This document shows positions 2,757-48,948 of a stretch of 64,000 bases of DNA, in pieces. A program made the translations under genes and the position numbers. The notes beneath the pieces were generated by a model. The model was not told where the DNA came from. It searched no databases and worked only from the letters and a program-made list of their open reading frames with translations. Positions within the stretch are counted from its first letter, which is position 1. Every line of letters begins with the position of its first letter. The stretch is taken from contig NC_016474.1 of the NCBI RefSeq assembly GCF_000226095.1, positions 3,038,001 to 3,102,000 on the forward strand, written 5' to 3'. The DNA is from Thermothelomyces thermophilus ATCC 42464 (taxonomy: Eukaryota > Ascomycota > Sordariomycetes > Sordariales > Chaetomiaceae).

Positions 2757-3736
2757 TTAAAAGGTGCTCCAGTTCCAATCCCTCGGCACGCTGTGGGCCG
2801 CATCGGGCGTGTGAAGCGGCAGGCTGCCGATGCCGCCACCGGTAGGTGACGCCGCGACGGGGGTCGACGGAGTGTCGGTCTGGCACTGGCGAATGCCCCC
2901 GGTCGATTCGCGCCTCGGCGGCTTGCTCGTCGCCAAGCGTCGCCACTCCTTGAACTGCGTGTAACAGTGGCCGCACGCCCGGCTTGGCGTGCCGCGCGGG
3001 TTGAAGTTGGCGTCCTGGTCGAGGGGGATCTCGTAGGCGCTGTGCTGGTCACAAAAGATGTTGCCACACTTGCGGCAGTGATGGCGCCGCGTGAAGTAGC
3101 TGAAGTGGCGCTTGCAGGTCGCGTGGTCGCAAATGGTCGACTCGTGGTCGGGCTGCAGGAGCGCGTCATGTCAGCATGGGTGCACGATGGAAAGAAAGAC
3201 GGAGTCGCGCCGGCATCACGCGGGGAGAAACATACCTTCCAGTGCTCCCGAGTGGGCGGGCCTGTAGGAACTGGGAACTGACCGAGATCCCAATTGCTGT
3301 CAACGAATTTCGCGCTGTCGCCCGTGGACCGCCTACTCAGCCGGCCGAACGCGCTCAGACCGCCGAGGCTCATAAAGCTGCTGCTACTTGGGCGCAGGAA
3401 TTCCTCGGTCGTGCCATTGTCGTCCTCGGGCTGTGGAGGAGCGGGCGGCTCCTTGGATGGGAACTCGGTCGGGCGTAGCACCGCGGGGACATACAGAGGC
3501 CGGATTTGGCGGGTGAGATGGTTCTTGGATGATGTCGGTGAGATGTTTCCCGGTGTCCCGAGCGGTGAGAGTGGAGAGTTGAGTTGGGTGGACGTGGGGT
3601 AAGCAGTCGCGATAGCAGGAGGTTGAGATGGAACCTGCTGTTGGGGGTGGTATTGGGGGCGCTGCGGGTAAGCAGCGGCGTAGTAAGGAGTCTGCTGCTC
3701 TCCTGGAAGCCGCGGCATTATGAAATCGGTCGCCAT
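2757..3736 (-). CDS. FYVE zinc-finger protein (PI3P-binding, endosomal)
   Basis: This is a predicted 298-residue protein with a proline/glutamine/serine-rich disordered N-terminus and a C-terminal FYVE domain, which in this family binds phosphatidylinositol 3-phosphate on endosomes and vacuoles. Exons read from the minus strand are 3736-3236 and 3152-2757, with an 83-nt intron (GTATGT...TGCAG). The FYVE domain shows WKPD (WxxD motif, completed by the splice), the CDHATC knuckle, the basic patch RRHHCRKCG and the later SRACGHC pair, so the zinc ligands are complete. ATG at 3736 (MATDFIMP) is the first ATG in frame; the frame continues upstream without ATG. There is no RING, VHS or Rab-binding domain, so it is not Vps27, Pib1 or Pep7 as usually built. 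The exact orthologue is uncertain. Confidence 0.88.
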
Positions 3737-6508: not shown

Positions 6509-8864
6509 GCCCTTGAGGGTGACTAAGAGCAGGCCGCGCCCTGGAACGGGATTCGGAACATTGGACCGCCGTGTCCTCCCTCGGCGCCTCGACTGAGATA
6601 GGATGAATGCTGCTTCTCGCGTGGCTTCCTTGACGGTCCTCAACCGACATCTACCGCCTTGGTGTACCACTGGTGTTTTGGCCCGGGCCCAGGGTCGACG
6701 AGGAGTGGCCTCGATACTCACTCGAATCTATCCGCCTGGGTGATATTTTTGGCCCTGGAGCCGGCTTTAGCCCTTTGGTCTCTCAATTCGCTTGGGAACG
6801 GTCGGAAGACTTCACCTTGGGCCCGACACGGAGCCGACAAGCCGCCGGACAGCTTCAAGAAAAGGTTTCACCGAATCATGGGCTCAATCAGGAGAAGGTA
6901 GCTGTGGTGTTCGTGATGGATCATCCAGCTTCCGCGCCCTCGCTCTCGTCCCCGGCGACAGCGACAGCCGCTCGGATTTCTGTTATTACAATACCCCGAT
7001 AGATGAATGATCTGTACAAGAATATCGATGATCTTTGTCTGCTAGCTTTCTGTGAGAGTGAGGTTCTACCTTTAATCCGTACAGTACGACATTACGAATT
7101 AGTTAATCTGGTCGGTCTCCGTCATATCAACATTACCGTTACACTGCATGCTCCAGATTCAACCTGATGTGCCGCGGGAGCCGCCAAAAGTCCTGCTTGG
7201 TACTCTCCTAAAGTGTGCATTTTGTCATCTTGTCTTGATTGTCTCGAGTACGGAGCCGTGTTCGGAATACGCAATGAGAAATTTGGGGGTGGGGGGTTTG
7301 ATCAGCTTGGGATCCACCAAGACCTGCCCTTCCGCGAGAGCCTCCGTCGGACTTCAAGCCCTCACAGTCTTACACTACGGAGCAAGGACATCCACCAACC
7401 ACCTCAGCTTTTGACCAAGCCGTGTAAGACGGTCGGTTTCTCCGACCGCATAACGTTGTGAGCCATTCATTTTGCACCCTCACCGCCACACCACACTCGA
7501 CTCGAATACGGAGCGGAGCGGAGCGGACGTGGGAAATTCAAGCATGTGAGCGAGAGCATTTTAGCGACACAAGGCGAACGGGCACAGGGTAGGCGCTGAT
7601 GGGGGCAAATACTTAGGACAGAAGAGGTAGGTTTCGCTTTCCTTCTCTGCCAAAACGTTGCACTGCATAAGGTCGGACTCTCCACCGGTCCATGGCTACC
7701 CTTGTAGTGGCCTGACGGAGGAGAAATTGACGGAGTGTGATTGAGAGAAAAAGGTTATCGTCGAGTCCTGATTGGCGAGGGCTGAACAGGTTTGGGTAAG
7801 AGCAGTCTCCGTCAAGCCTCGTTCTGCGTCGCCCGTTTTGGTTAAGTTGTCATCCATAATCGGTAGTGTACACTACACAGTACGGCGTACTGTGTATCCT
7901 ATCCACAGTAATCCGTCCAAACGGGCCAATCTGGCGTTGTTTGCGGAAGGTGGTGGCGGCTCAAAGACAACGGAGGGGGAAAGGGGGGAGGGTTAGGAGG
8001 GGCGAAAGGCGGGGGAATGCGGCAAACCGAGCATCGGATGGTTTCGGCCTCTCTGCTGTTTCGCACACGTACAAACATCCCTATCTTACTTACATAAGAC
8101 ACCTACAAACGGCGTGCATTTCTTGTGCAACATACACTACACTACAGACTCGGCGCGCGTTCAACGACGGGGTCGCGTGCGATGGTGGAGGAACGTCGGT
8201 GAGATGGGCGAGCGGATACTCCGTAGCGCCGTCTCACTCTCCCTCCTGGTCCTCCCCACAATTGCAGCAGCAGCAAGCAGCCCCTTGGTTCCCGTTACGT
8301 CATGGCAACAAGGGGGACCCGGACGGGCGCGGCGTTCGAGCCCCCGTCTGCGTGCAGCAGGAACGAGAGCGTGGGCGACGTCCGATTGTCGGTTGTTTGA
8401 GAGTTGATACACTTACACAGTACACTACTCTACACTCCTCCTGAGAGTTGGGGGTTTGATAGTTAGTGTGCAAAAAGAATGAGCTGGAACTTACTCAAGT
8501 TGTTGCAGTTCAGGGGTTGTTGATACAAGTCTTGTCAGGCACCTCTCCGGACGGGGCTAAGGTTATCCCTGCTTCTCTTGAGAGTAAGTAAGTAACATTC
8601 CGCCTGCGAGGGCAGAACATGGAGTGGAAGCATCCAAGTGAGAGAGAAAGTATGGGATACTCTCGTGTAAAAAGTGCACACAACCTGTTGTGAATCGATT
8701 GTTGTCACATAGTCACTAATTACAGACAGCCAAGTCGTTTATGAACGCGCCCTTTTCTTCCCATGCAAATGAACACAACTGGTACTCCGTACATACGATA
8801 CAATGCTTTCCCTCCCCAACTCCCATCAAACAAACAATACAAATAGGAGTAGTGTGTGTACCCT
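6509..8864. other. Intergenic region, convergent, with short palindromes
   Basis: About 2.4 kb between the 3' ends of ykt6 and cnxABC. No coding potential is recognised. It holds two overlapping palindromes (7863-7876 and 7874-7896), TACACTAC motifs near 8131-8150 and 8420, and TACTCCGTA at 8217-8225 and 8783-8791. Confidence 0.6.
7863..7896. repeat. Overlapping palindromes (GTAGTGTA family)
   Basis: GTAGTGTACACTAC at 7863-7876 is a perfect 14-nt palindrome. It overlaps a second inverted repeat at 7874-7896 with 10-nt arms (TACACAGTAC / GTACTGTGTA) around GGC. The same core, TACACTAC/GTAGTGTA, recurs in other non-coding parts of the window. Confidence 0.8.
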
Positions 8865-11252
8865 CTAACCACGGCTCCCGTCTCCTTCGACCCAGCGCCC
8901 GCTCCTGCCGCCCTCTTTGAGCACCACCCTCAACCCCTCAATCACCATCCCCTTATCCACCGCCTTGCACATATCGTACACCGTCAGCGCCGCCGCGCTG
9001 GCTGCCGTGAGAGCCTCCATCTCGACCCCGGTCTTGCCGTCGCATGAGACGGTCGCCGTGATCTCGAGCACCCTACTACTACCATCATCATCATCATCAT
9101 CAGTATCCCCCGCCCCCGAGCTCGCCGGTTGCGGCGGCGGCGGCGGCGCGACGAGCTCGACCTCGGCGTGCGTCAGCGCGATGGGGTGGCAGAGCGGGAT
9201 CAGGTCGGGCGTGCGCTTGGCCGCCATGATGCCCGCGATGCGCGCCGCCGCCAGCACGTCGCCCTTCTTGATCTGGTTGTCCCGGATCAGGGCGAGCGGC
9301 AGGGGCGAGGAGAAGCGCACGGCGCACTTGGCCTGGGCGGTGCGCCTGGTCGGGGTCTTGTCCGAGATGGAGACCATGTGTGCAGAGCCCGAGGCGGTGA
9401 CGTGCGTTAGCCTGGGGGCGGGGCCTGCGGCGTTGTCGTTCTTCTCGCCGACGTCGTTGTCATTATTGTTTTTGCTTTTGTTGTTGTTGCTGTTGTTGCT
9501 GTTGTTGCGGCGTGTAGAGTTCGAAAAGAAGCGGTGTTGGTGAGTGGTGGCCGCGCTGTTCGTGGTGAAGGGAGGGATCAGTAAGCCAGGTAGGTGCTTT
9601 GAGGGTAGAGGCCTAGACGGCAAGCCGGCATGATGCCACGACAGACGATTCCGGGTGCGGCCCGGGGGTGACGTTGGAGCATCTACAGTTTCTACTTAGC
9701 GCTCGTCTGACCGTACATGCCTTATCCAGATGTTTGCGAGATGCCCCCGACCATGAGATGCCATGATATGCCCCCAACTCCGCCCAATGCTCGACAGGAA
9801 GATGAAAGGAAACCACCCCCCCCCCCCCCCAACCAAAAAAAAAAAAGAAAAAAGAAAAAAAGGACAAAGTCACCCACCAATCAGTATCATCGGTCGGTTT
9901 TTCATGTGCTCCAGCTCCCCGATCCCGGCATGCTTCTCCTTCTTCCTCTTGACGGCCATGCCGATGACGTTGAGGAGCTCATCCGAGTTAGGCACCACCA
10001 GCGGCTGAGAGGCAGGGCTTGGGGGGCTCTCTATCCTCTCCAAGGCCGCCTGCTCCAGCGCTTTGAAGGCCGTCTCGTCAATGGGCTCGCCCTTGTTCAC
10101 TCTTCGTATGATATCTCGCAGCGAGACTTCGGCATTGCCAAACAGACACACCTTGAGGTTCCCATCGCTGGTGATCCGAAGCCTGTTGCATGTCCCGCAA
10201 AAGTTGTGAGTCATGCTAGTGATGAAGCCGATTCTGCCTGTGAAGCCGGGCACTTCGAATGTCTTGCTCGTGTCGTTCCTGTGGCCCTTAACCCTCCGCA
10301 GGTCCGGGTATCGGGTCCTGATCAGGTCCAGCATCTCCTGGTAGCTGAACATCTTGCCCTCGCTCCACTTGTTGCCGTCAAAAGGCATGTACTCGATAAA
10401 GCGCACCTCGACGTCCCTCTCGCGCGTCAGTTCTACAAAGGGGAGGATCTCGCGGTCGTTGAGCCCGCGCATGACGACGCAGTTGATCTTGAACTTGATG
10501 CCCGCCCCCGCGCGCTTCAGCTCGAAGATGCGGTCCATGGTTTTCTGGACCGCGCTGAACCCCGCCCGCCGCGTCATCAGCTGGAACTGCCAGGGATCCA
10601 GCGTGTCGAGAGAGAGGTTGACGCCCGTCAGGCCTGCCTCGACCATGGGTTCGAGCTTACGGTGCAGTGAGAGTCCGTTGGTGGTCAGGCACAACTCTCG
10701 CAGTCCGTGGGCGCGTAGCGCTCCGATCTGCTGCATCAGGGGCACGATATCCCGCCGCACCGTTGGCTCGCCGCCCGTGAGCCGGATCTTGGTCACCCCC
10801 TGCGAGACGAAGAGGGAAGAGAGCATGACGATCTCGGGCGTCGTCAGGAGCTCCCGCGAGGGTGAGAGAGGCACGCCCTCCTCGGGCATACAGTACAGGC
10901 AGCGTAGGTTACACCGCTCCGTGACCGAGATGCGCAGATAGTCGTGCTGTCGATGGAAGGAGTCGGTCAGGAACTCGGAGAAAGGCTTGGCATCCCGGAT
11001 GCGGTCTCTACGCGAGCGTGCCGGATGCACGGGGGACTGCGCGGAGCCATTAAGATCCTGGCCGTCTAAAGAAGCCGGCGCCCCGGTTGCTGGCATGTGA
11101 GAGCTTGGCGGCGGCGACGGTTCGTGTGCGTGAACCGCAGCGGCTCCGGATGCGAGACGTTTCGGTTGCAGCGAAGCCCCTCGACTTCTCGTGGTCGGCT
11201 GCACCACGCCGGACCGGAGCCCGCGAGTGACGGAGCGCACAGTCGCTGCCAT
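8865..11252 (-). CDS. cnxABC: Molybdopterin precursor synthesis MoaA-MoaC fusion (cnxABC)
   Basis: This gene performs the first step of molybdenum cofactor synthesis. A radical-SAM GTP 3',8-cyclase (MoaA) is joined to cyclic pyranopterin monophosphate synthase (MoaC), as in Aspergillus nidulans CnxABC. Exons are 11252-9878 and 9682-8865, giving 730 residues. The N-terminus ([15 protein letters not shown]) is basic and serine-rich, fitting mitochondrial import. MoaA shows CNLRCLYC near residue 120 for the SAM cluster and a second cluster motif, CGTCNRLR. MoaC shows [16 protein letters not shown] and [21 protein letters not shown] low-complexity Asn/Ser linker precedes MoaC, and a Gln/Asp/Ser-rich insert lies inside it. 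The 195-nt intron starts GTGGGT and ends TGTAG. If it is kept, translation stops two codons later as ...ILIGG, the normal MoaA C-terminus. The gene is divergent from wdr8. Confidence 0.93.
9683..9877 (-). promoter_or_regulatory. cnxABC intron with splice donor overlapping Gly-Gly-stop
   Basis: On the coding strand the exon/intron junction reads ATT G|GTGGGTGA. Unspliced, it is ATT GGT GGG TGA (Ile-Gly-Gly-stop). Spliced, the G joins AT GCT (Asp-Ala) and continues into MoaC. The intron is long for this genome (195 nt). It has a non-consensus donor, a U-rich tract followed by a 15-nt G run (forward strand C run 9816-9830), and an acceptor preceded by a CTAAG branch-like site. A regulated choice between two products is an inference. 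Confidence 0.7.
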
Positions 11253-12074
11253 CGTCCGACTTCGCCACTTCAGCCGTCGTAACAAGTTTTTTGTTGCTGG
11301 TGAATCTGGTCCTGATCGGAGTGCCGGCGCATGTCGTGGGAATGAATGGGAAGAGGCAGTGCTATGCTCTGTTATCAACTCGGCCCTCGGGCCCTGGTGA
11401 CATAACGCCCTCTCGTTTGAGGATGCTCTCCTGTTGGTTTGCCGGAGATAGGGCGAGCAGGCGCCGGCGGGATGGCAAGCGTTGACTCAGCGCGGGGGCG
11501 GGAGGTCTCCGCGGGGCAGCAGAGGCGGGATTCGGGCGAGCAGGTGGGCCCCGGTGCTGCTCAACGGTTCGGAGGGCGGCGAGACCCCCCCAGAGGGTCC
11601 AAGCTCTCTCCCCTCGGAGCCATTGTTGGGCTTGGCACTGGTGGACCTGCTAGTGTGTACGGACCTATACCTTAGGTGCTTGGGGAGCGGCAGCGGCAGG
11701 CATTGGCTGGGCAGGCACGCACTCTGACCCTCATTTCACAAGCCAGTACGGAGGTAGTAACTAATACTGCGCAAGCTCTTCTGGCAGTTTGCTGTTGTAT
11801 GTATGTACATACATACATACATACGTCGCTGCAGTGTTTTGGTTCTGCACCGCGGGCGCACAGGCCGTATCTGGCAATCTTGACCTTGTAACACTCGGAA
11901 GGCACGAGTTGGAGCAGAATAGGCAGCAACGGCAGAGCCGTCCCAATCTTTCCAGCTTCTCCATCCGGAAGTACTAGTGGTTTGATTGCCGCCACAGCCG
12001 TCGACCTTCGTCTCTCGCTCGGCCGTAATTGTTCCTCCGATCACTGTCGAAGCTACGACCGACCAAGTTTCACG
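11253..12074. other. Divergent promoter region cnxABC / wdr8
   Basis: 822 bp shared upstream of two start codons. It contains the microsatellite palindrome at 11797-11816. No gene is recognised. Confidence 0.6.
11797..11824. repeat. GTATGTACATAC microsatellite palindrome
   Basis: GTATGTATGTACATACATAC at 11797-11816 is a perfect 20-nt palindrome that continues as further ATAC units. Related copies lie near 18536, 20967 and 50342, all outside coding sequence. Confidence 0.85.
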
Positions 12075-21673: not shown

Positions 21674-24600
21674 CTACTGCATCGTTTTGAGGAAGCCGTC
21701 CAAGTCGAAGCTTTCCTCATACTGGGCGTTATCCCACAGCTCGCCCAGTCCCTCGAGCCACGCCGCCTTCTTGCCCGGCTGTCGGACGTCACCCGTCTCA
21801 ATGTCCACCATGTCCTCCTCCCGACCCTCCAGGTTCTCCTTGCCCCCTTCCGTTATGAGATTCGGTCCCGACTCGCCCAGATTGAACAGGTCGAGAATCT
21901 GGTCAGTGTCCATCGTGGCCAGGCCCGCGTTCTGCTGGTTCACTACCGTGCTCGCCACGTCAATCTTGAACCGCTGGAGGCCCAGGATCTTCTCCTCGAG
22001 CGTGCCGCGAGTTATGAGCCGGTACACGTTGACCACCTTCTTCTGCCCGATGCGGTGCGCCCGGTCCATCGCCTGCAGATCCTTCTGCGGGTTCCAGTCG
22101 TGCTCCACAAAGATGACCGTGTCGGCGCCCGTGAGATTCAGCCCCAGTCCACCGACGCTGGTCGTCAACAGCAGCACGTCATACGAGGGATCGCTATTGA
22201 ACTTGTTGACGATGTCTTGGCGCCGATTTGCCTCGACCGAGCCATCCAGGCGGAGGTATTGCACTGTCGGGAGCATGGTCTTCAGCACCGTGTTCTGCAC
22301 CATGTCGAGCATCTCCTTCATCTGGCAGAAGATGAGCGCCCGGTGTGGCTTGATCGGTGTGTACAACGGGTCGGACGACTCGCCCCCTTCGGTGCCGATC
22401 CCGCAGTCCACAAGAAGATCCCGGAGAGCTGTCAATTTGGGTGCGTGCACCGGGTCCTCGAGACTCGTGTTCTGCTTGGCCAGGTATTTCTGCGTCTCTT
22501 CGTAGGACCTGTGGCCCGGCTTCATGACAAGGGCGGGAGAATTGCAGAGCTTGCGCATGTACTGCAGCGCCTGGAAAATGTGTTGCTTGGCTTCCTTGTC
22601 GTCCCTGCCAGCCTGCTCCGAGAGCTTCCGGCCTTCTCTCTTGGTGAATTCCTCAAACAGCTTGATTTGCAGGTCGCTGAGGTCGCAGTAATAGTTCTGG
22701 AGGATCTTGGGCGGCAGGTCGTCCAGCACCTCCTCCTTGAGACGGCGGAGGAGGAAGGGTAAGACCTGCTTATGCAGAGCTTCGATGGCTAACGCGCCAG
22801 CTTCTTGCTCCTTCGACGACGCCTTGCTGTACCGACTGTTCGCAATCGGCTTTGCAAATCGGTCCAGGAAAACCTTTTCAGCACCCAAAAAGCCCGGCAT
22901 TAGAAAGTCGAAGAGAGACCACAGCTCCAGAACGTTGTTCTGAATCGGCGTGCCTGTCAGAATCAGCCGGTGGTTGCTGATCAGCCTCTTGACCGCCAAC
23001 GTGATTTTGGCTCTCGGGTTCTTGATCAGGTGGCCTTCGTCGAGGACGACGTAGTTCCAATTATACTTCTCGATCACGTCGATATCATTTCGGCAGACGT
23101 CGTACGAGGTGATTACGATATCCGTCTGGTCAAGCCGGTCCTTCATGGCCTTGCGCTCGGCTGGAGGACCGACATACGCCGTCACGCTGAGGAATGGAGC
23201 ATAAGTCTTGATCTCTTGCTGCCAATGACCTGAGAGCGTGGGCGGGCAAACCACGAGGGACGGGAGTCTCCTGACCTCCGGGGCACCCGTCTTGGCGAAC
23301 TCCTCGGCACGCTGATGATGGTCGCTTGCCACCATGCAAATCGTCTGTAGTGTCTTGCCGAGGCCCATGTCGTCGCAGAGAATGCCGTGCAAATGGTATT
23401 TGTTGAGGAAATGGAGCCAGTTGACACCCTCCTGCTGGTAGGAGCGAAGTTCAGCCTTGATGGCAACGGGGATCTGGAACGGCTCGACCTTCTTGGGATC
23501 CAAGAGTTGAGCTATGAATGTGCGCTCGCGGTCGCGGCCCTTCAACAACTCCTCCGACAGACCCGGGGGATCCGGGATACCAGCCTCGAGCGGAACCAGC
23601 TTCACGAGTGTCGCAAACGATGTAGTAGCAATCAGGCGGATCTCGTTGTCCGAATCGCTCATCCGACCCAAAACAGGCACGATGAGGAAGATGACATATG
23701 GGAGGATGGCGTCCCCCATCACGGCGATGAGGTGATATATGGCCTCGATAGCGCCTTGCCGGAAGTTGAGGTCCAGGGGGTTGTTGATGGATGGAAGGAC
23801 CTTCTCCACCAACGCCGTCATGCCCTCGATAGTGATCACGCTGCAGATAGTTGCCATGCACTTGGCCGCCATGTACCGGAAGACGGACAACTCTGACCGC
23901 AGAGCCTTGATTACCAAAGGCACCTGCCGCATGACGAAAGGATGAAGAGCCGAGTGCAATGTTGGAGCCATAGTCCGGATTACAGACATGGCATCAATGA
24001 TCTCCTGGCCGAATGTGTTTTCTGGATCTCTAGCCTCCGAGGGCAAGTCGCCGGTGAAGGCTCTCACCAGGGGCTCCTCCATAAATGCCTGCAGGCTGGG
24101 GATACGATCCAGAAGTTCTGGGCCAAATGTTTGCGACAGTATCTCCAGAGCCTCTTTGGCACCGCGTCGGGTGATACGGGCGGCCCTGGCTTCTCTTGCA
24201 AACCTGGCTGCGTCCGGATGGTCGACACGATCCTCCTCCTTCTGCATCGAGAGGATGACGTTTGTCTTGTGAGCATGGTTTGGAAATTCGGGTGTTTCCG
24301 CAACTTCGACGCATGAGAATTTGACCAGATTCGCAACCACCTTGTCGGCTGGGCCGCGGCGGCCAGATTCGGTAAAGAGCTGCACGAGGCGCGCGATTGT
24401 CGCAGCCGAGCGGCTCTGGAGCTCTTGGTTCTCTTCCGTCTTGATGCTGTCCATGATGGCTTTGATCAGGGGACTCGGCTTCTTGGGCAGAACTTTCATA
24501 GCGACGAGCGCACAGGCTGCGGCAGCCCTGATGCGGGCATCACGGGCCTCTTTAGCCGCCTTTGCCTCCTCAATCGCGGATATCGTCGCGTCGCGAGCCT

Positions 24601-27508
24601 CGTTAAGCTGCGGGAGCGCAATCAAACGCTGCCCGGGCGCCATGGCTTTTTTGAGCCTGTCAAAGTCGTCGGCCACGACCTTCTCGGCGTTTGCGACAGA
24701 GAAAGCCCCGGGACCGGCCTCTGGCTCGCCCTGGACCACGACAGCCAGCGTCGGCAGCTTATTGTGAGAGACCTTTCCGTGGTCACGGAAGAGATTGATG
24801 AGCTGCTGCGATTGCGACCGCACCCGGTGAACATAGCTCACCAGGTCCCGGTAATGCGACGGCCGCTCCTGGTCAATGATCTTTTGCAGAGGCTCGATAA
24901 ACCGCCCTGCTGCATCACTTGTCGCGCAGTTCTTCGCGTACTCGTCAATCACCATGGACGCAGACAGCTGCGTTGATGCGAACGGAGATTTCAGCCCTTG
25001 CAGGATGTTGCTGTCATACGAGGCGAGCCTGGAGGGCGGGATGAGCGACATGATGAGACCCATGGCCTTAGCCGCCGAGATGCGGGAGCGAATGAGCACA
25101 TCCATGCCGACCAGATCAACATCGCCTTGCATCATGTGGCCATCAACGTCGTGGGCGTGCGTCGTCGGCGGAGTGTCGTCCACCTTGGTCGACTTTCTCC
25201 GGCGCTTCGTGGCCCTCTCGCCCTCTGGGGGCGATGACCGTCTGCTTGGGGTAGGGACAACGCCGGGAACCGAGTATGTCCCGCCCGAGGGCTTTTGAAA
25301 GAGGTTACCGTTCATAGGAATGGGGTGTCGAGGGACGCCGATGGGATGAAGCGTCAGCTGCATAAGCGGTTCCACGTGTGCCTCGAATTCGTCGGCAAGG
25401 GCCACTGGGTCCTTAGCAAGGTCACGTACGAGCGCAGCCCACAGCTCCAGAGACATGCTGAGCGTATCTTGATCCCGCTCGACCACAATGTTCTGGAAAA
25501 CGAGGCGCAATATCCTCCCGTTGAGCCATCCTTGAGACGCCTCGCCACCGAAGTTCGCGAAAGTCATTAGGGCTTTCAGCACGGCAAGCCGCACCGACGT
25601 GATGGTGTGCCGGAGGAAAGGATAAAGCCGGGGAACTAGGAGGGTGAAGGATCGCTCCTCATCCCGGGAGGCCGAGAGCTTCATAGCTTCCAATACTTCG
25701 GGGAAGCTGCACAAAGTCGCAAGCAGGTCCATGATTTTGCCGGTTGAAGCACTCAGGTCATCACCCAGGTTCGAGAGACTCTCCCAAACAATGTGGATGA
25801 GGCCTTCTAGTGCTCCTCGGCGCATCATGACGAATTCCTTGGCCATTGGAATTAGGGTTGCCGCGCTGACTGAGCGGACATCGTCGTCCATGTCGCCGAG
25901 GCCTTTCATGACAGCACGGATGACGCCGTCGATCATGTCCCCATCCTGGAGCAGGAGGTCCTTACGCACGGCAACCACATACCTCAAGCCCACCATGCCT
26001 CCGTGGCAAACGGCCCAGACATTCTGCTCCAGGTTCAGATCTTCTTGCATCACCATTCGATAGAGCAGCCGGTAAATGGCGTACACCGATTGCGCCGGGA
26101 TGTGGCGAAGAACCGAACCAAGAGTTTGGCCGACAGTCTCTCGGATAGGAGCTACTGACGTGTCGGAGCTGTAGTCGGTAAACTTGTCGAGCATGAGGAC
26201 GCAACAAAGGCGGCACGCCAAGTCATCCAACCACTGGCGGTTAAGCCTATCGTTTTCTTTGCGCGATTTGCCTTTACGCCTCCCAGCGCCGGCGCCGTGA
26301 ACACGGATAATCTCTCGCAGGCCCATGGCGGCGCCATGGCGTGTTTCCCATTGAGGATCAAACAGGTCGACCTTTAGAAAATCGCAGAGGCGTTCGTACG
26401 GCCATTCGGCGCCCTCCATATTATCGTCCACTTCGAGCTCGGACTTGATTGGGAGAACAGGCCCCTTGAACTCGGACACAACCTTGGTGTCTTCGTCCAC
26501 GTCGGCGGGCCGGTCAAGGCTGAAATAATCAGACACCTTGCCGTTCTTTTTCGAGTCAGCATCGGGCATAGGTGTGTCGTCGGCGAACCCGTCTGAACCC
26601 GCCGTTGTTGTCCGGCGGAGGGTCAGATCACCAAAACCACTCTTACCCTGGGCGGCCTTCTGAGCCTCCCGCTTCCGTTTCCTCTTGAGAACATTCAGTT
26701 GTCGTGAGCTAAGCTTGCTCTCGTCCTGAGCCTGGGCCTGACTCTCGCTGCCTATGCTGTCTTGCCGCCCGAAGCCATTTGTGCCGGCCCCAGCCTCGTG
26801 CGGCGTCTCGGGGCTGATTGCATGCTCGGGAACGACGGGCAGCTCGTCTTCCTCAACCACACGGCCGAGAAGACCAAGCCTGCCGATCAGCGTTTTTTGC
26901 TGATGAGCCAGCCGCTTCTGCGGGTCCAATGCGGCGAGCGCGAGGTCCACGTTGCCCCCGCGGAGCAGCGGCCGGCCATACTTCAGAATGGAGGCAACGT
27001 CAAGGTTGTCAAGCGAAAGGTAATCCTCTTGGTCGAGGATGGAATCCTTCTGTTCTTCCTTCTTGACGATGCCATTCTTGTCGCCGGCTGCGTCATCCTC
27101 AGGGGGAGACGTGTCATCCGCATTGGGATCGTACAAGGGCGCATTCTCGATGATTTTGCCTATTGCCTTGGCGGCAGTGCTTCTTGTCTCCCATTCTCTG
27201 TGCCTGAGGTAGGGGACAACCCGGGTCAAAAGGTTGAACAGCTCATCGGGATGCTGTTTTTGCCAGTCGGCAAGCTGATTGACAGCCGTGTCCCGAATCA
27301 GTCGGGTGCTGCCGGTTTCGAGGATTCTAAAACCACATATTAGCCTCGCCACGAAGAAAACTAGCACAGGCTGCACGGCAGGGGGTTGGCAGCCGCTTAG
27401 GTAACGGTAACTTACGTGACGAGTCGGTCAAGCCTAGCGGAACGAGTTGTTAGTCGAAAATAATAACGAGGCGGAAGATTGCTTAGCTCCCACTCACCGA
27501 GACGCCAT
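21674..27508 (-). CDS. mot1: Mot1, TBP-removing Snf2-family ATPase
   Basis: Mot1 (BTAF1) uses ATP to strip TATA-binding protein from DNA and redistribute it. Exons are 27508-27498 (11 nt), 27433-27416 (18 nt) and 27326-21674, giving 1893 residues, the usual size. The spliced start is MASRLDRLVTILETGSTRL, matching the conserved N-terminus. The first 1250 residues or so are HEAT-like repeats that clasp TBP, interrupted by charged disordered insertions. The ATPase follows: DDMGLGKT near residue 1329, DEGH near 1439, then the helicase C half with GLGLNLTGADTVIFVEHDW and RAHRIGQ near 1762. The C-terminus ends in SFDLDGFLKTMQ. The last exon is a single uninterrupted frame of 5.6 kb, which argues that base-level accuracy here is good. 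The gene is divergent from smc3, 2.5 kb away. Confidence 0.97.
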
Positions 27509-30059: not shown

Positions 30060-33000
30060 ATGCACATCAAGCAAATCATCATCCAGGGCTTCAAAAGGTG
30101 CGCGAGACATTCGGGACGCGCCTCTGAAAATCATCATGGAGTCGCTGACCCCCAACCCCTGTCACCCGATACAGTTACAAGGACCAGACTGTCATAGAGC
30201 CCTTCTCCCCCGGCACCAATGTCATTGTTGGGCGCAACGGTTCCGGCAAGAGTAATTTCTTCGCCGCGATCCGGTTCGTGCTCAGCGATGCCTACACCAA
30301 CATGAGCCGCGAGGAGCGGCAGGCTCTCCTTCACGAGGGCTCGGGCTCCGCGGTCATGTCTGCTTACGTTGAGATCATTTTCGACAACCGCGACAAGCGG
30401 TTCAGCGAACCCGGCGACGAGGTCGTGATCCGCCGCACGATTGGTCCGAAGAAGGACGAATACTCGGTCGACAGGAAGGTCCAGACCCGCGCCGACGTGC
30501 TCAAGATTCTCGAAACTGCCGGGTTTGCCAAGGAGAACCCCTTCTACATCGTGCCCCAGGGTCGCATCGCGGCGATAACCAACATGAAGGAATCCGAGAG
30601 GCTCAACCTGCTGAAGGAAATTGCCGGAACCAACACCTACGACGATCGGAGGATACAGTCACTTAAAATCATGGCTGAGACCAACAGCAAGCGCGAGAAG
30701 ATCGACGAGACCCTGGCATACATCGAGGAGCGCCTGAGAGAGCTGGAGGAAGAGAAGGACGAGCTGCGCGACTTCCAGGAGAAGGACAGGGAGCGCAGGT
30801 GTCTGGAGTACGCGCACTGGCACCGCCTGCAGGCGACCAACGCCGAAACCCTGGAGCAGCTGGAAGAGGCGAGGCAGGGAGGTGCTGGTGTCTCGACCAA
30901 GGACCGCATGCAACTCCAGAAAACAGAGAGGGAGATCAGCGCCCTGGATCAGCAAGCGCACGAACTCAGGCAAACCCTGGAATTGCTTGCCATGGAGCGG
31001 CGACAGCTTGACGAAGACCGCAGAGATGCGGCTCGGGCCCGTGCAAAGGCCGAATTGAAGACGAAGAACCTGGACGAGAGTAGGCACGCGCGGGAACAGG
31101 CGCAACAAAAGCAAGAGGCAGAGTTACAGGAAGTGAGGCGGAAAATCAAGGCTGTCGAGGCGGACATTGCGCAGATAACGCCCGAGTACGAGGAGAGGAA
31201 GGCCGAGGAAGCCCGGATCAGGCTGCGACGGGACGAGGCGGTAGCGGGCAAGAATCGCTTGCTCACCAAGCAAACGCGCAGTTCTCAATTCAAGACGAAG
31301 GCAGAGCGCGATAACTACCTCAGGCAGGAGATCAACGATGCCACCACGTCCCTGGGCGTGCAAAAGGCCAATGCGTTGGACGCGGCGGAGCAGGTGAAGT
31401 CGGTCGAGGCGTCTATCGCGCAGCTCGAGAAGGCCATCCAGGACATTCGCCAAAACATCGAGGGTTACGGCGGGAACCGAATGACGCTCGCCGAGAAGCT
31501 GACCAAGGCTCAGGAGACCCGGGAGCAGCTGCACGAAGAGCGGAAGAGGCTCCGCCGCGAGGAGGACAAGCTTGGCTCGCTGCTCGCCAACACGCGGGCG
31601 GAGAGGGATCAGGCCGAGTCCGCGCTCTCGCACTCGATGGACTCGGCGACAGCCAAGGGTCTAGCAACGATAAGGCGGCTGAAGCGGGAGAGGGATATCC
31701 CGGGGGCCTATGGAACGCTGGCGGAGTTGATGAGTGTGCCGGTCGAGGCATACAAGTTGCCAGTTGAGCAAGTGGCGGGGAACAGTCTCTTTCATTACGT
31801 CGTCGACAACGACAAGACGGCGACCATGCTCTCCGACCATCTTTACAAGACCTACGGCGGGCGATTGACCTTCATGCCTCTGGAGCAGTTAAGGCCGAGG
31901 CAGGTCAAGATGCCCAGGGCATCGGACGCGCAACCTCTGATCAGCAAGATTGAGTATGACCCACAGTTCGAGAAAGCCTTCCAGCAGGTCTTTGGCCGCA
32001 CCATTGTCTGCCCAAACCTGTCGGTTGCGTCCCAATATGCCCGATCACACGGGCTGGACGCGATCACGCCAGAAGGTGACACCACCAACAAGAGGGGCGC
32101 GATGACGGGAGGTTATGTGGATGCCAGGAGGTCACGCCTCGACGCGGTTCGGCGAGTTAGTCAATTGCGCGACTTGTATGAGCAGCAACTGGCGGACATG
32201 GACAGGATCCGGAAGGAGATCGAAATCATCGATCAAAAGGTGACGAGTGCGAGCGGCGAGGAGCACAAACTCGAACAGCAGATGCGCCAGTTCGAGATGG
32301 GCTTTGAGCCGCTCAAGACGGAGCTACGGACCAAGAATGCCCAGCTGGAGCGCGAGCGAGCCCACCTTGAGGCGGCTCTGGAACGGCGGGCACAGGTGGA
32401 AAGGAACCTCAAAGAGCTGGACGACTCCATCTCGATGTACCAGGCCGAGCTTTCCCAGGACTTCAAGAAAGCCCTGTCGGCAGCCGAGGAGCGGCAACTG
32501 GAGGAATTCACCGCCGAAGTGCATCGACTCCAGCGGGAGCTGAAGGAAGTCAGCAAGAAGCGCTTCGACCTTGAAGGCCGCAAGAAGCTCCTCGAGACCG
32601 AGTTGCAGAGCCATCTCCGGCCGCAGGAGGATCAACTCCGGAGCCAAGCCTTCGAGAACTCGACGGTGGGCGGCAGCGAAAGCTACCAGGATGCCCAGAG
32701 GGAGCTCAAGAGGGCGCAGCGAGCCATGGCTGAGATTGAGCAACAGCTTGGTGAGAACGAGCAAAAGACGGAGAAGGTGAGCGGCGAACTCGCCAAGCTG
32801 GAAACTCAGAGGTCAGAAAAGGAGCAGGAGCTGCAGGAGCTGCAGAAGCGGATCGATCAGCACCAGAAGAAGATGGAGAAGAACATCCAGACTAGGGCCC
32901 GCCTCGTCAGCCAGGCTGCCGAGTACGCCAAGAATATCCGGGATCTGGGGATCCTGCCGGAGGAGGCGTTTGGCAAGTACGAGAAGATGAAGCCGGAGCA

Positions 33001-33907
33001 GGTACGTGACGCGGCCGCAGAGCCAAGGCTCGGATGCGCTGACAAGAAGTTAGATTGAATCGAGGCTGCGGAAGGTCAACGAAGCGCTCAAGAAGTACAA
33101 GCACATCAACAAGAAGGCGTTTGATCAGTACAACAGCTTCACCGCCCAGCGAGATCAGCTCTTGAAGCGGCGCAAGGAGCTCGATACATCTCAAAAGTCA
33201 ATCGAGGCGCTGATCGAGCATCTCGACCAGGAAAAGGACGAGGCGATCGAGCGGACTTTCAAACAGGTCTCGCGGGAGTTCGCCACCATTTTCGAAAAGC
33301 TGGTCCCCGCCGGCCACGGCCGTCTCGTGATCCAGCGCAAGGCGGATCGCGGGAAACAAAGGGGAAACGCTGAGGACTCAGAGGAGGAGACGACGGGCGT
33401 GGAGAGTTACACGGGCGTGGGCATTTCGGTCTCGTTCAACTCCAAGGTCATGGACGAGCAGCAGAAGATCCAGCAGCTCAGCGGCGGGCAGAAGAGTAAG
33501 CCCGTTCTTCCCCCCCCCCCCCCCCCCAAAAAAAAAAAAAACCACCCTTCCCCTTTCCAGACAAAACGGCTGGCTCGACGATTACGGGTTGCTAACAAGA
33601 CGATACGCACCTAGGTCTTTGTGCTCTCTGCCTCATCTTCGCCCTGCAGGCAGCCGAGTCGAGTCCCTTTGTCATCTTTGACGAGGTTGACGCCAACTTG
33701 GACGCACAGTACCGGACGGCGGTGGCCAGCCTGCTGATGGAGATCTCGCGGGAGCAGAAGACGCAGTTCATCTGCACGACGTTCCGCCCGGAGATCGTCC
33801 ACGTTGCGGACAAGTGCTACGGTGTCACGTTCCACAACAAGACGAGCACCATCGACTGTGTGCCGACAGAGGAGGCGCTAAACTTTGTCGAGGGCCAGAA
33901 GAAGTGA
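30060..33907 (+). CDS. smc3: Cohesin subunit Smc3
   Basis: Smc3 pairs with Smc1 to form the cohesin ring that holds sister chromatids together. Exons are 30060-30097, 30175-33001, 33054-33495 and 33615-33907, giving 1199 residues, the usual length. The spliced start is MHIKQIIIQGFKSYKDQ. Walker A is GRNGSGKSN. Lysines 105 and 106 (GPKKDEY) are the pair acetylated by Eco1 in characterised orthologues, with the same numbering as human SMC3. Long coiled coils flank a hinge at roughly residues 520-680. The C-terminal head has LSGGQK near 1096 and FVIFDEVDANLD near 1122. The third intron (33496-33614) contains an 18-nt C run followed by 14 As. The first coding exon is 38 nt. Confidence 0.97.
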
Positions 33908-46934: not shown

Positions 46935-48948
46935 ATGTCGCTGAATATTCCCAACGCGCCAAAGGCCGGCTTATTCAAGCAGGGCTACAATAAGTAAGTG
47001 ATTTCTTTTTGCTTGCTGCTTTTGGACCCGAAGCAGCCCCTCAACTCCCTCTCTACCCCGCCATAACTCTCTCTCCCCAAGCAGCTCCGACGGGGGTGAC
47101 TGGTCGCCTTTCTGCGCCGACAGCAACTCGTAGTAGACTGGTGATTCACGCTGACCATTTGCTCCCTTTCTCGCTCCCGCCCCGTCTTTAGCTACGATTC
47201 CGAAGATGGAGCTGTCCTCCGCAACATTGACGCCTGCCGGGCCATCTCGTCGACGGTCCAGACGTCGCTGGGCCCCTACGGCCGCAACAAGATTGTCATC
47301 AACCACCTGCAGAAGATGATCCTCACCTCGGATGCCGCCACCATTTTGCGCGAGCTCGATGTCGTACACCCCGCCGCCAAGCTGCTCGTCATGGCCAGCC
47401 AGCAGCAAGAGTCGGAGATGGGTGACGCCACGAACCTCGTCATTATCCTGGCCGGCGAGCTGCTCAAGAAGGCCGAGGACCTCCTGCGCATGGGCCTCAA
47501 GGCGTCCGACATTGTCACCGGCTACGAGCGTGCCCAGAAGATCGCCCTCGATACGCTCGAGGAGCTCGAGATCGACAAGGTGGAGAGCCTGCAGTCGCAG
47601 GAGGAGATCAGCAAGGCCATCCGGACCGTCATCGCCAGCAAGCAGAACGGCAGCGAGGAGTTCCTGGCCAACCTCGTCGCCGAGGCCGTCCTGTCGGTCC
47701 TGCCCAAGAACCCGGCCAACTTCAACGTCGACAACATCCGCGTCGTCAAGATCATGGGCGGCAGCCTGGACCAGAGCCGCGTCGTCAAGGGCATGGTGTT
47801 CCCCAAGGAGCCCAACGGGACGGTCAAGAAGGCTAGGAAGGCCAAGGTCGGCGTCTTCACCTGCCCGATCGACATCTCCCAGACGGAGACCAAGGGCACC
47901 GTCCTATTACACAACGCCAAGGAGATGCTCGACTTCACAAAGGGCGAGGAGGAGCGCCTCGAGGCGGTGATCAAGGAGCTGTACGACGTCGGCCTCCGCG
48001 TCGTCGTCGCCGGCTCGACCGTCGGCGAGCTGGCCATGCACTACCTCAACCGCTACGGCATCCTGGTCATCAAGATCCTCAGCAAGTTCGAGCTCAGGCG
48101 GGTATGCAGGGTGGTGGGCGCCACGCCCCTCGCCCGGCTCGGCGCGCCCATGCCGGACGAGATGGGCACCATCGACGTGGTGGAGACGCAGGAGATTGGC
48201 GGTGACCGGGTGACGGTCTTCCGGCAGGAGGACGAGGCCACGAGGACGGCGACGCTCGTCCTCCGCGGCGCCACGCAGAACCACCTGGACGACATTGAGC
48301 GGGCCGTCGACGACGGCGTCAACGTCATCAAGGCCATCACCAAGGACCCCCGGCTCGTCCCCGGCGCCGGCGCGACAGAGATTGAGCTCGTCGAGAGGAT
48401 ACAGGCCGTCGGCGAGAAGACGCAGGGCCTGGCGCAGTACTCCATCAAGAAGTACGGCGAGGCGTTTGAGGTAGTGCCGCGGACGTTGGCCGAGAGCGCC
48501 GGTCTGGACGCCACCGAGGTCCTCAGCCGGCTATATGCCGCCCACCAGAGGGAGGACGGCTGGTCTACGGGCGTTGACATCGAGGTGTGTTTTATTATTA
48601 TTATTTATTGTTTGCCTTTTGTTTCGTGCGCCCCAAAACTACTAGCCGCTTGCTTGCTAACTGAGCCCCTCTTCCCACACCAGAACCAGGATAACACGGG
48701 CATACTGGACGCCGAGGACGAGGGCATCCTCGACCTTCTCGTCAGCAAGCACTGGGCTATCAAGCTGGCCACCGAGGCCGCCCGCACGGTGCTCTCGGTT
48801 GACCAGATCATTGTCGCTCGGCAAGCCGGCGGGCCGAAGCCTCCCGGACCCAACCCGGTAAGTTTGACTGCAAGCCCCCTTTTCTGGCTTGGTCTCCGAG
48901 TGAACATTGCTAACCAAGATTGTTTGGCAGAACTGGGATGAGGACTGA
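46935..48948 (+). CDS. cct8: Chaperonin CCT subunit theta (Cct8)
   Basis: This is subunit 8 of the cytosolic chaperonin TRiC/CCT, which folds actin, tubulin and other proteins. Exons are 46935-46993, 47192-48584, 48684-48857 and 48931-48948, giving 547 residues, the expected size. The start MSLNIPNAPKAGLFKQGYNN and theta-type LGPYGRNKIVINHL are clear. The nucleotide site includes TSLGPYG and EMGDATNLV; the usual GDG of this motif reads GDA here. The apical domain contains the substrate-facing GVFTCPIDISQTETKG. The C-terminal equatorial part has LVPGAGATEIEL and DQIIVARQAGGPKPPGPNP and ends in NWDED, encoded by an 18-nt last exon. Introns are canonical, and the first (198 nt) is long for this genome. 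Confidence 0.96.

What the first reader, a model, noticed from the sequence alone, without database searches (positions are those of the whole stretch)
9683..9890. One intron may switch cnxABC between a MoaA product with the Gly-Gly tail and a MoaA-MoaC fusion
Seen: the MoaA part ends MKNRPMILI followed by GGT GGG TGA if the intron is kept. The intron donor GTGGGT begins inside the first Gly codon, so splicing deletes the Gly-Gly and the stop and fuses MoaC in frame (G+AT GCT). Known: the C-terminal GG of MoaA enters the active site and is needed for catalysis. In human MOCS1, alternative splicing yields either a GG-ended MOCS1A or a fused protein lacking GG that supplies MoaC activity. Inference: the same division of labour is encoded here by retention of a single weak-donor, 195-nt intron carrying U-rich and G15 tracts.
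Basis: partly seen in the sequence, partly recalled or inferred. Interest (0 to 1): 0.75.

Follow-up and report, generated by a model that had tools for sequence, protein, structure and literature searches.

The report
Known nit-7-type MoaA/MoaC splice switch
A fungal gene for the first step of making the molybdenum cofactor can give either a stand-alone first enzyme or a fusion with the second, depending on whether one intron is kept; the same arrangement has already been worked out in the mould Neurospora, so this is a confirmed relative rather than a new discovery.

Summary
On the minus strand a 195-nt phase-1 intron (9877-9683) starts inside the first Gly codon of GGT GGG TGA. Kept, it gives a 460-aa MoaA ending [10 protein letters not shown]; removed, a 730-aa MoaA-MoaC fusion without Gly-Gly. 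A gene parser not given the intron chose the same borders, even with this gene left out of its training. Both domains match their families, and 79 of 80 fetched bacterial MoaA end in Gly-Gly. The bare GGTGGN-stop word is not rare (6 seen, 4.9 expected), so the case rests on homology and position. Retention was not measured in this organism, probably another Sordariales fungus. One modest lead: a presequence-like linker with a single RFF/S site where MoaC might be cut free. The U-rich and G15 tracts have no shown role.

The parts
9878..11252 (-). Exon 1 of the nit-7/cnxABC/MOCS1-type gene: likely mitochondrial presequence (aa 1-43, no D/E) plus MoaA
   Evidence: Pfam Radical_SAM and Mob_synth_C; TIGR02666 339 bits. 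The rough parser chose later starts, 11096 and 10889, so the ATG at 11252 is my reading.
9683..9877 (-). The 195-nt phase-1 intron, GTGGGT...TAG
   Evidence: same borders chosen
9870..9878 (-). GGT GGG TGA: Gly-Gly tail and stop used if the intron is kept; the donor begins at the second base of the first Gly codon
9835..9869 (-). U-rich tract, intron +9 to +43, 83% T (highest of the 26 predicted introns, this one included)
9816..9830 (-). G15 tract, intron +48 to +62
9695..9699 (-). Branch-point-like CTAAG, its A 13 nt before the intron end
8865..9682 (-). Exon 2: linker and MoaC, stop at 8867-8865
9378..9680 (-). Linker (aa 460-560 of the fusion); aa 460-532 hold no Asp or Glu and 10 Arg/Lys
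9522..9533 (-). RFFS (aa 509-512), the only RX[FYL][SA] site in the fusion; candidate internal MPP/Icp55 site
   Evidence: motif rule as printed in PMC8847149 (passages)
8907..9377 (-). MoaC domain by Pfam, from Met561 (ATG at 9377)

Best explanation
This is the orthologue of Neurospora nit-7 (Aspergillus cnxABC, human MOCS1). One transcript has two fates. If the single intron is kept, translation ends at GGT GGG TGA and gives a mitochondrial MoaA with the free Gly-Gly tail that it needs to work. If the intron is spliced, the tail is lost and a MoaA-MoaC fusion results, whose MoaA half serves mainly to carry MoaC into mitochondria, where MoaC is cut free. Shown here: the sequence, frames, domains and conserved tail. 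Shown by others in N. crassa: both RNAs, the need for both proteins, import, release of the B part, and more unspliced RNA on nitrate. Inferred: that the same holds in this fungus.
For: Exact borders and products; intron chosen by a parser not given it, also with this gene's ORFs left out of training and with the branch, acceptor and length preferences switched off; MoaA and MoaC family matches; Gly-Gly end in 79 of 80 bacterial MoaA, the 80th carrying the tail in another frame; N. crassa exon 1 of 1459 nt, the same phase 1, with a 237-nt intron encoding the double glycine and a stop, if the paper counts from the ATG; human MOCS1 alternative splicing gives the same two kinds of product; near-full-length Mot1 match to PDB chains that I recall as Chaetomium thermophilum, placing the window near Neurospora.
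Against: No RNA or protein data for this organism; no genome is held and no other fungal locus could be fetched, so conservation of the overlap in fungi rests on a paper's numbers. The Gly-Gly-stop word alone is at chance frequency. The second N. crassa donor, 9 nt downstream (delta 1469-1696), has no counterpart: no GT stands at intron +10 here.
Confidence: 0.9

Rival explanations
1. The intron is spliced constitutively; retained RNA is noise, and the GGT GGG TGA overlap is a relic or a side effect of a GTGGGTGA donor after a G.
For: The bare word is not enriched (6 seen, 4.9 expected). Retention was not measured here.
Against: All MoaA would then lack the Gly-Gly tail that 79 of 80 bacterial MoaA keep. 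In N. crassa both products were required for growth on nitrate.
Confidence: 0.05
2. Both enzymes come from one unspliced bicistronic RNA, MoaC starting at its own ATG (Met561, 9377).
For: An in-frame ATG stands at the start of the MoaC domain. The N. crassa paper says that this was discussed for Aspergillus cnxABC, and tests the equivalent M623.
Against: Six ATGs lie between the retained stop and this ATG. In N. [quoted passage not shown]
Confidence: 0.03
3. The gene is a plain fusion enzyme whose MoaA half works without Gly-Gly.
For: The fused frame is open over 730 aa.
Against: The Gly-Gly is conserved and called functionally important in MOCS1A (PMC3602415 passage). In N. [quoted passage not shown]
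Confidence: 0.02

Closest known systems
Neurospora crassa nit-7 (Wajmann et al. 2020, PMC7232280: parts 1-4 of 6 and the passages seen; Probst et al. 2014, cited there, not seen)
   Same: One gene, two exons, one intron of a length divisible by three (237 nt there, 195 here) that encodes the double glycine and a stop; phase 1 in both, if the paper's numbers count from the ATG; unspliced gives A, spliced gives AB.
   Different: N. crassa also uses a second donor 9 nt downstream, absent here; its linker is longer by the paper's numbering (B part from M623, against Met561 here).
Human MOCS1 (PMC9607355 passages)
   Same: Alternative splicing gives MOCS1A or a MOCS1AB fusion that is cut (at position 432) to release MOCS1B.
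   Different: The choice is made by alternative splicing in exon 9 of a ten-exon gene; the N. crassa authors report that the mammalian import model does not hold for NIT-7.
Drosophila Mocs1 (PMC5817353 passages)
   Same: Alternative splicing gives Mocs1A or the full-length fusion.
   Different: Detailed donor anatomy not seen.
Aspergillus nidulans cnxABC (mentions only; original paper not seen)
   Same: One locus for both domains.
   Different: Its intron structure at the Gly-Gly was not checked.

Membership tests
nit-7 / cnxABC / MOCS1 type gene | MoaA followed by MoaC in one gene, able to be fused in frame by splicing | tested here: met
nit-7 / cnxABC / MOCS1 type gene | Gly-Gly plus stop available only when splicing does not join the two parts | tested here: met
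   identity of the tail
nit-7 type (single-intron retention) | One intron, phase 1, donor within the first Gly codon | tested here: met
   phase in N. crassa deduced from the nucleotide numbers
nit-7 type (single-intron retention) | Both spliced and unspliced RNA are made, unspliced raised on nitrate | not testable with these tools
   No RNA data
nit-7 type (single-intron retention) | Second in-frame donor 9 nt downstream (a variant reported as not essential in N. crassa, so not a strict requirement) | tested here: not met
   GT dinucleotides stand at +1, +5, +13 and later, none at +10
MoaA (GTP 3',8-cyclase) | MoaA profile above cut-off | tested here: met
   TIGR02666 339 bits against cut-off 284.05
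MoaC (cPMP synthase) | MoaC profile above cut-off | tested here: met
   TIGR00581 177.9 bits against cut-off 141.5; PF01967 174.1 bits against 27
Internally MPP-processed tandem precursor (like yeast Arg5,6) | Presequence-like internal stretch with an R-X-F/Y/L|A/S site | tested here: inconclusive
   Stretch and site present, but 15% of 20,000 linker shuffles hold such a site, 63 of 5000 whole-protein shuffles hold as long a D/E-free run, three other predicted proteins of the window have longer D/E-free runs, and the linker shows only a modest hydrophobic moment

The most novel reading that the evidence does not exclude
The fusion made by splicing is a two-enzyme mitochondrial precursor whose linker holds a second, internal presequence. 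The matrix processing peptidase (with Icp55) cuts at RFF/S (aa 509-512), frees a MoaC of about 23 kDa, and leaves a tail-less MoaA half that is discarded. This would name the protease and the site for the release of NIT-7B seen in N. crassa, for which the parts of that paper that I read name neither.
Probability: 0.3. Interest if true: 0.4.

Novelty: already known. Interest (0 to 1): 0.2.

Why it matters
It supports, in what is probably a related fungus, the published view that intron retention sets the balance between an active MoaA and a carrier fusion for MoaC, a neat case where a splice donor and an essential C-terminus share the same bases. The overlap gives a comparative test for which fungi use the switch, and the linker gives a concrete candidate for how MoaC is released in the matrix.

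Tried and rejected
Own genome: none is held. Other fungal loci: a viral-contig scan gave 2 pattern matches, neither a relative; the genome collections are described as prokaryotic, so the requested comparison across Pezizomycotina could not be run, and N. crassa was compared only through a paper's numbers. Known RNA families in 8500-11500: none at gathering score. A special intron structure: not supported, z -0.75, 38 of 200 shuffles fold at least as well (9670-9900 folded). Rarity of the Gly-Gly-stop/donor word: not unusual. Bacterial MoaA fused behind another protein: lengths of 657, 641 and 640 aa in the list looked like fusions, but one search found plain ORFs of 348, 335 and 335 aa ending in the same tails; 5 of the 80 ORF strings in my script held an inner stop, so the lengths should not be used. 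L042, the one miss, carries the tail in another frame. The gene parse is rough: its training ORFs included both exons of this gene, its second pass used a donor matrix that included this donor, and it predicts overlapping genes on opposite strands near 34.8-36.5, 42-43.8 and 47-49 kb, so some of its 26 introns must be false and the donor tally is only a guide. The control without this gene's ORFs and without a donor matrix still chose the same intron. Linker as presequence: kept only as a lead, for the reasons in the membership test. A structure prediction was not run.

Full report
What is there. The minus strand of 8865-11252 holds one gene of two exons. Exon 1 (11252-9878, 1375 nt) encodes an N-terminus with several Arg and no acidic residue for 43 residues, then MoaA. 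Exon 2 (9682-8865) encodes a linker and MoaC. The intron is 195 nt, 9877-9683, phase 1. Pfam finds Radical_SAM, Mob_synth_C and MoaC; NCBIfam finds TIGR02666 at 339 bits (cut-off 284.05) and TIGR00581 at 177.9 bits (cut-off 141.5). In the PDB, MoaA chains (1tv7 and its further entries) and MoaC chains (1ekr first) lead the lists. A simple gene parser that I wrote, not given the intron, chose the same borders. Its training had included this gene's ORFs, so I repeated it with them left out, with no donor matrix, and with the branch, acceptor and length preferences first on and then off: the same intron came out both times. It placed the start later than I do, at 11096 or 10889.

The switch. If the intron is kept, ATT GGT GGG TGA ends a 460-aa MoaA in ...[10 protein letters not shown]. 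If it is removed, G joins AT GCT and the protein runs on as ...[16 protein letters not shown]... to 730 aa. The word GGTGGN plus stop on its own occurs 6 times in the window against 4.9 expected, so I do not use its rarity.

What is known. N. crassa nit-7 was described with two exons and one intron; the unspliced RNA makes NIT-7A, in small part encoded by the intron, and the spliced RNA makes an inactive A domain fused to B (PMC7232280, citing Probst et al. 2014, which I have not seen). The spliced form lacks nt 1460-1696, and the intron encodes the functionally relevant double glycine. If these numbers count from the ATG, exon 1 is 1459 nt, also phase 1. Among the transcripts tested, only the unspliced nit-7 RNA rose significantly on nitrate. 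A strain that cannot make the spliced form showed no significant growth on nitrate; heterokaryons needed NIT-7A plus NIT-7AB; NIT-7B alone was not mitochondrial; and NIT-7AB lost its A part after import. A figure legend speaks of a stop codon within intron 1. I read parts 1-4 of 6 of that text and the passages. Human MOCS1 and fly Mocs1 reach the same two products by alternative splicing (passages). The importance of Gly-Gly is stated in a passage of PMC3602415; its entry into the active site is from recall.

Which organism. No genome is held. The Mot1-like protein at 21677-27427 matches PDB chains 7z8s_E and 6g7e_B over 1,885 and 1,835 residues at 3722 and 3604 bits; I recall these as Chaetomium thermophilum, which would place the window in or near the Sordariales, the order of Neurospora. 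The species is not established.

How the choice might be made. The donor GTGGGT departs from GTGAGT at +4, the branch-like element is CTAAG, and intron positions +9 to +43 are 83% T, the highest of the 26 introns of the rough parse. U-rich tracts behind weak donors help recruit U1 through TIA-1/Nam8-type proteins in other systems (recalled), so such a role is possible here, but nothing tests it. The G15 tract has no shown role, and the RNA fold is ordinary (z -0.75).

A lead on MoaC release. The linker has 73 residues in a row without Asp or Glu, 10 Arg/Lys among them, and RFFS, the only RX[FYL][SA] in the fusion. This fits the R-X-F/Y/L|A/S rule for MPP followed by Icp55, and internal cutting by MPP is reported for yeast Arg5,6 (passages of PMC8847149). 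Against it: such a motif arises in 15% of linker shuffles and about 0.15 times per 103 residues in the other predicted proteins (15 in 9,973 aa); so long a D/E-free run arises in 63 of 5000 whole-protein shuffles, and three other predicted proteins have longer ones; the linker's hydrophobic moment is modest (at most 0.38; N-terminus 0.51; protein mean 0.21). In the listings and passages that I saw from the literature searches, none names a cleavage site for NIT-7AB; for human MOCS1AB a site at position 432 is given.

Verdict. The remaining new content is small: a probable second fungal case with the same base overlap, and a testable release site.

Noticed in passing
11507-11514 (+) and 11612-11619 (-): Two CTCCGHGG sites (NirA-type nitrate regulator motif, recalled) in the 822-nt stretch 11253-12074 upstream of the gene, up to a predicted divergent gene; 12 in the whole window, 0.15 expected in the stretch. 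GATA is not enriched (3 seen, 3.7 expected; HGATAR 2 seen, 1.2 expected) and the NIT-4-type TCCGCGGA is absent. It would fit nitrate induction.
   Followed up: partly
9522-9533 (-): RFFS in an acid-free, basic linker after the splice junction: a possible internal mitochondrial processing site.
   Followed up: partly
9816-9869 (-): T7, T6, T12 and G15 runs inside the intron; their exact lengths could be affected by sequencing slippage. They lie behind the retained stop and inside the intron, so neither product's frame depends on them.
   Followed up: no
L042 around 2455: A Sediminibacterium MoaA locus whose Gly-Gly tail lies in a different frame from the rest of the match, perhaps a frameshift.
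   Followed up: no
21677-27427 (-), 47145-48938 (+), 30149-33055 (+): Mot1-like SNF2 ATPase, CCT theta-like chaperonin and an SMC protein: ordinary eukaryotic housekeeping genes.
   Followed up: partly
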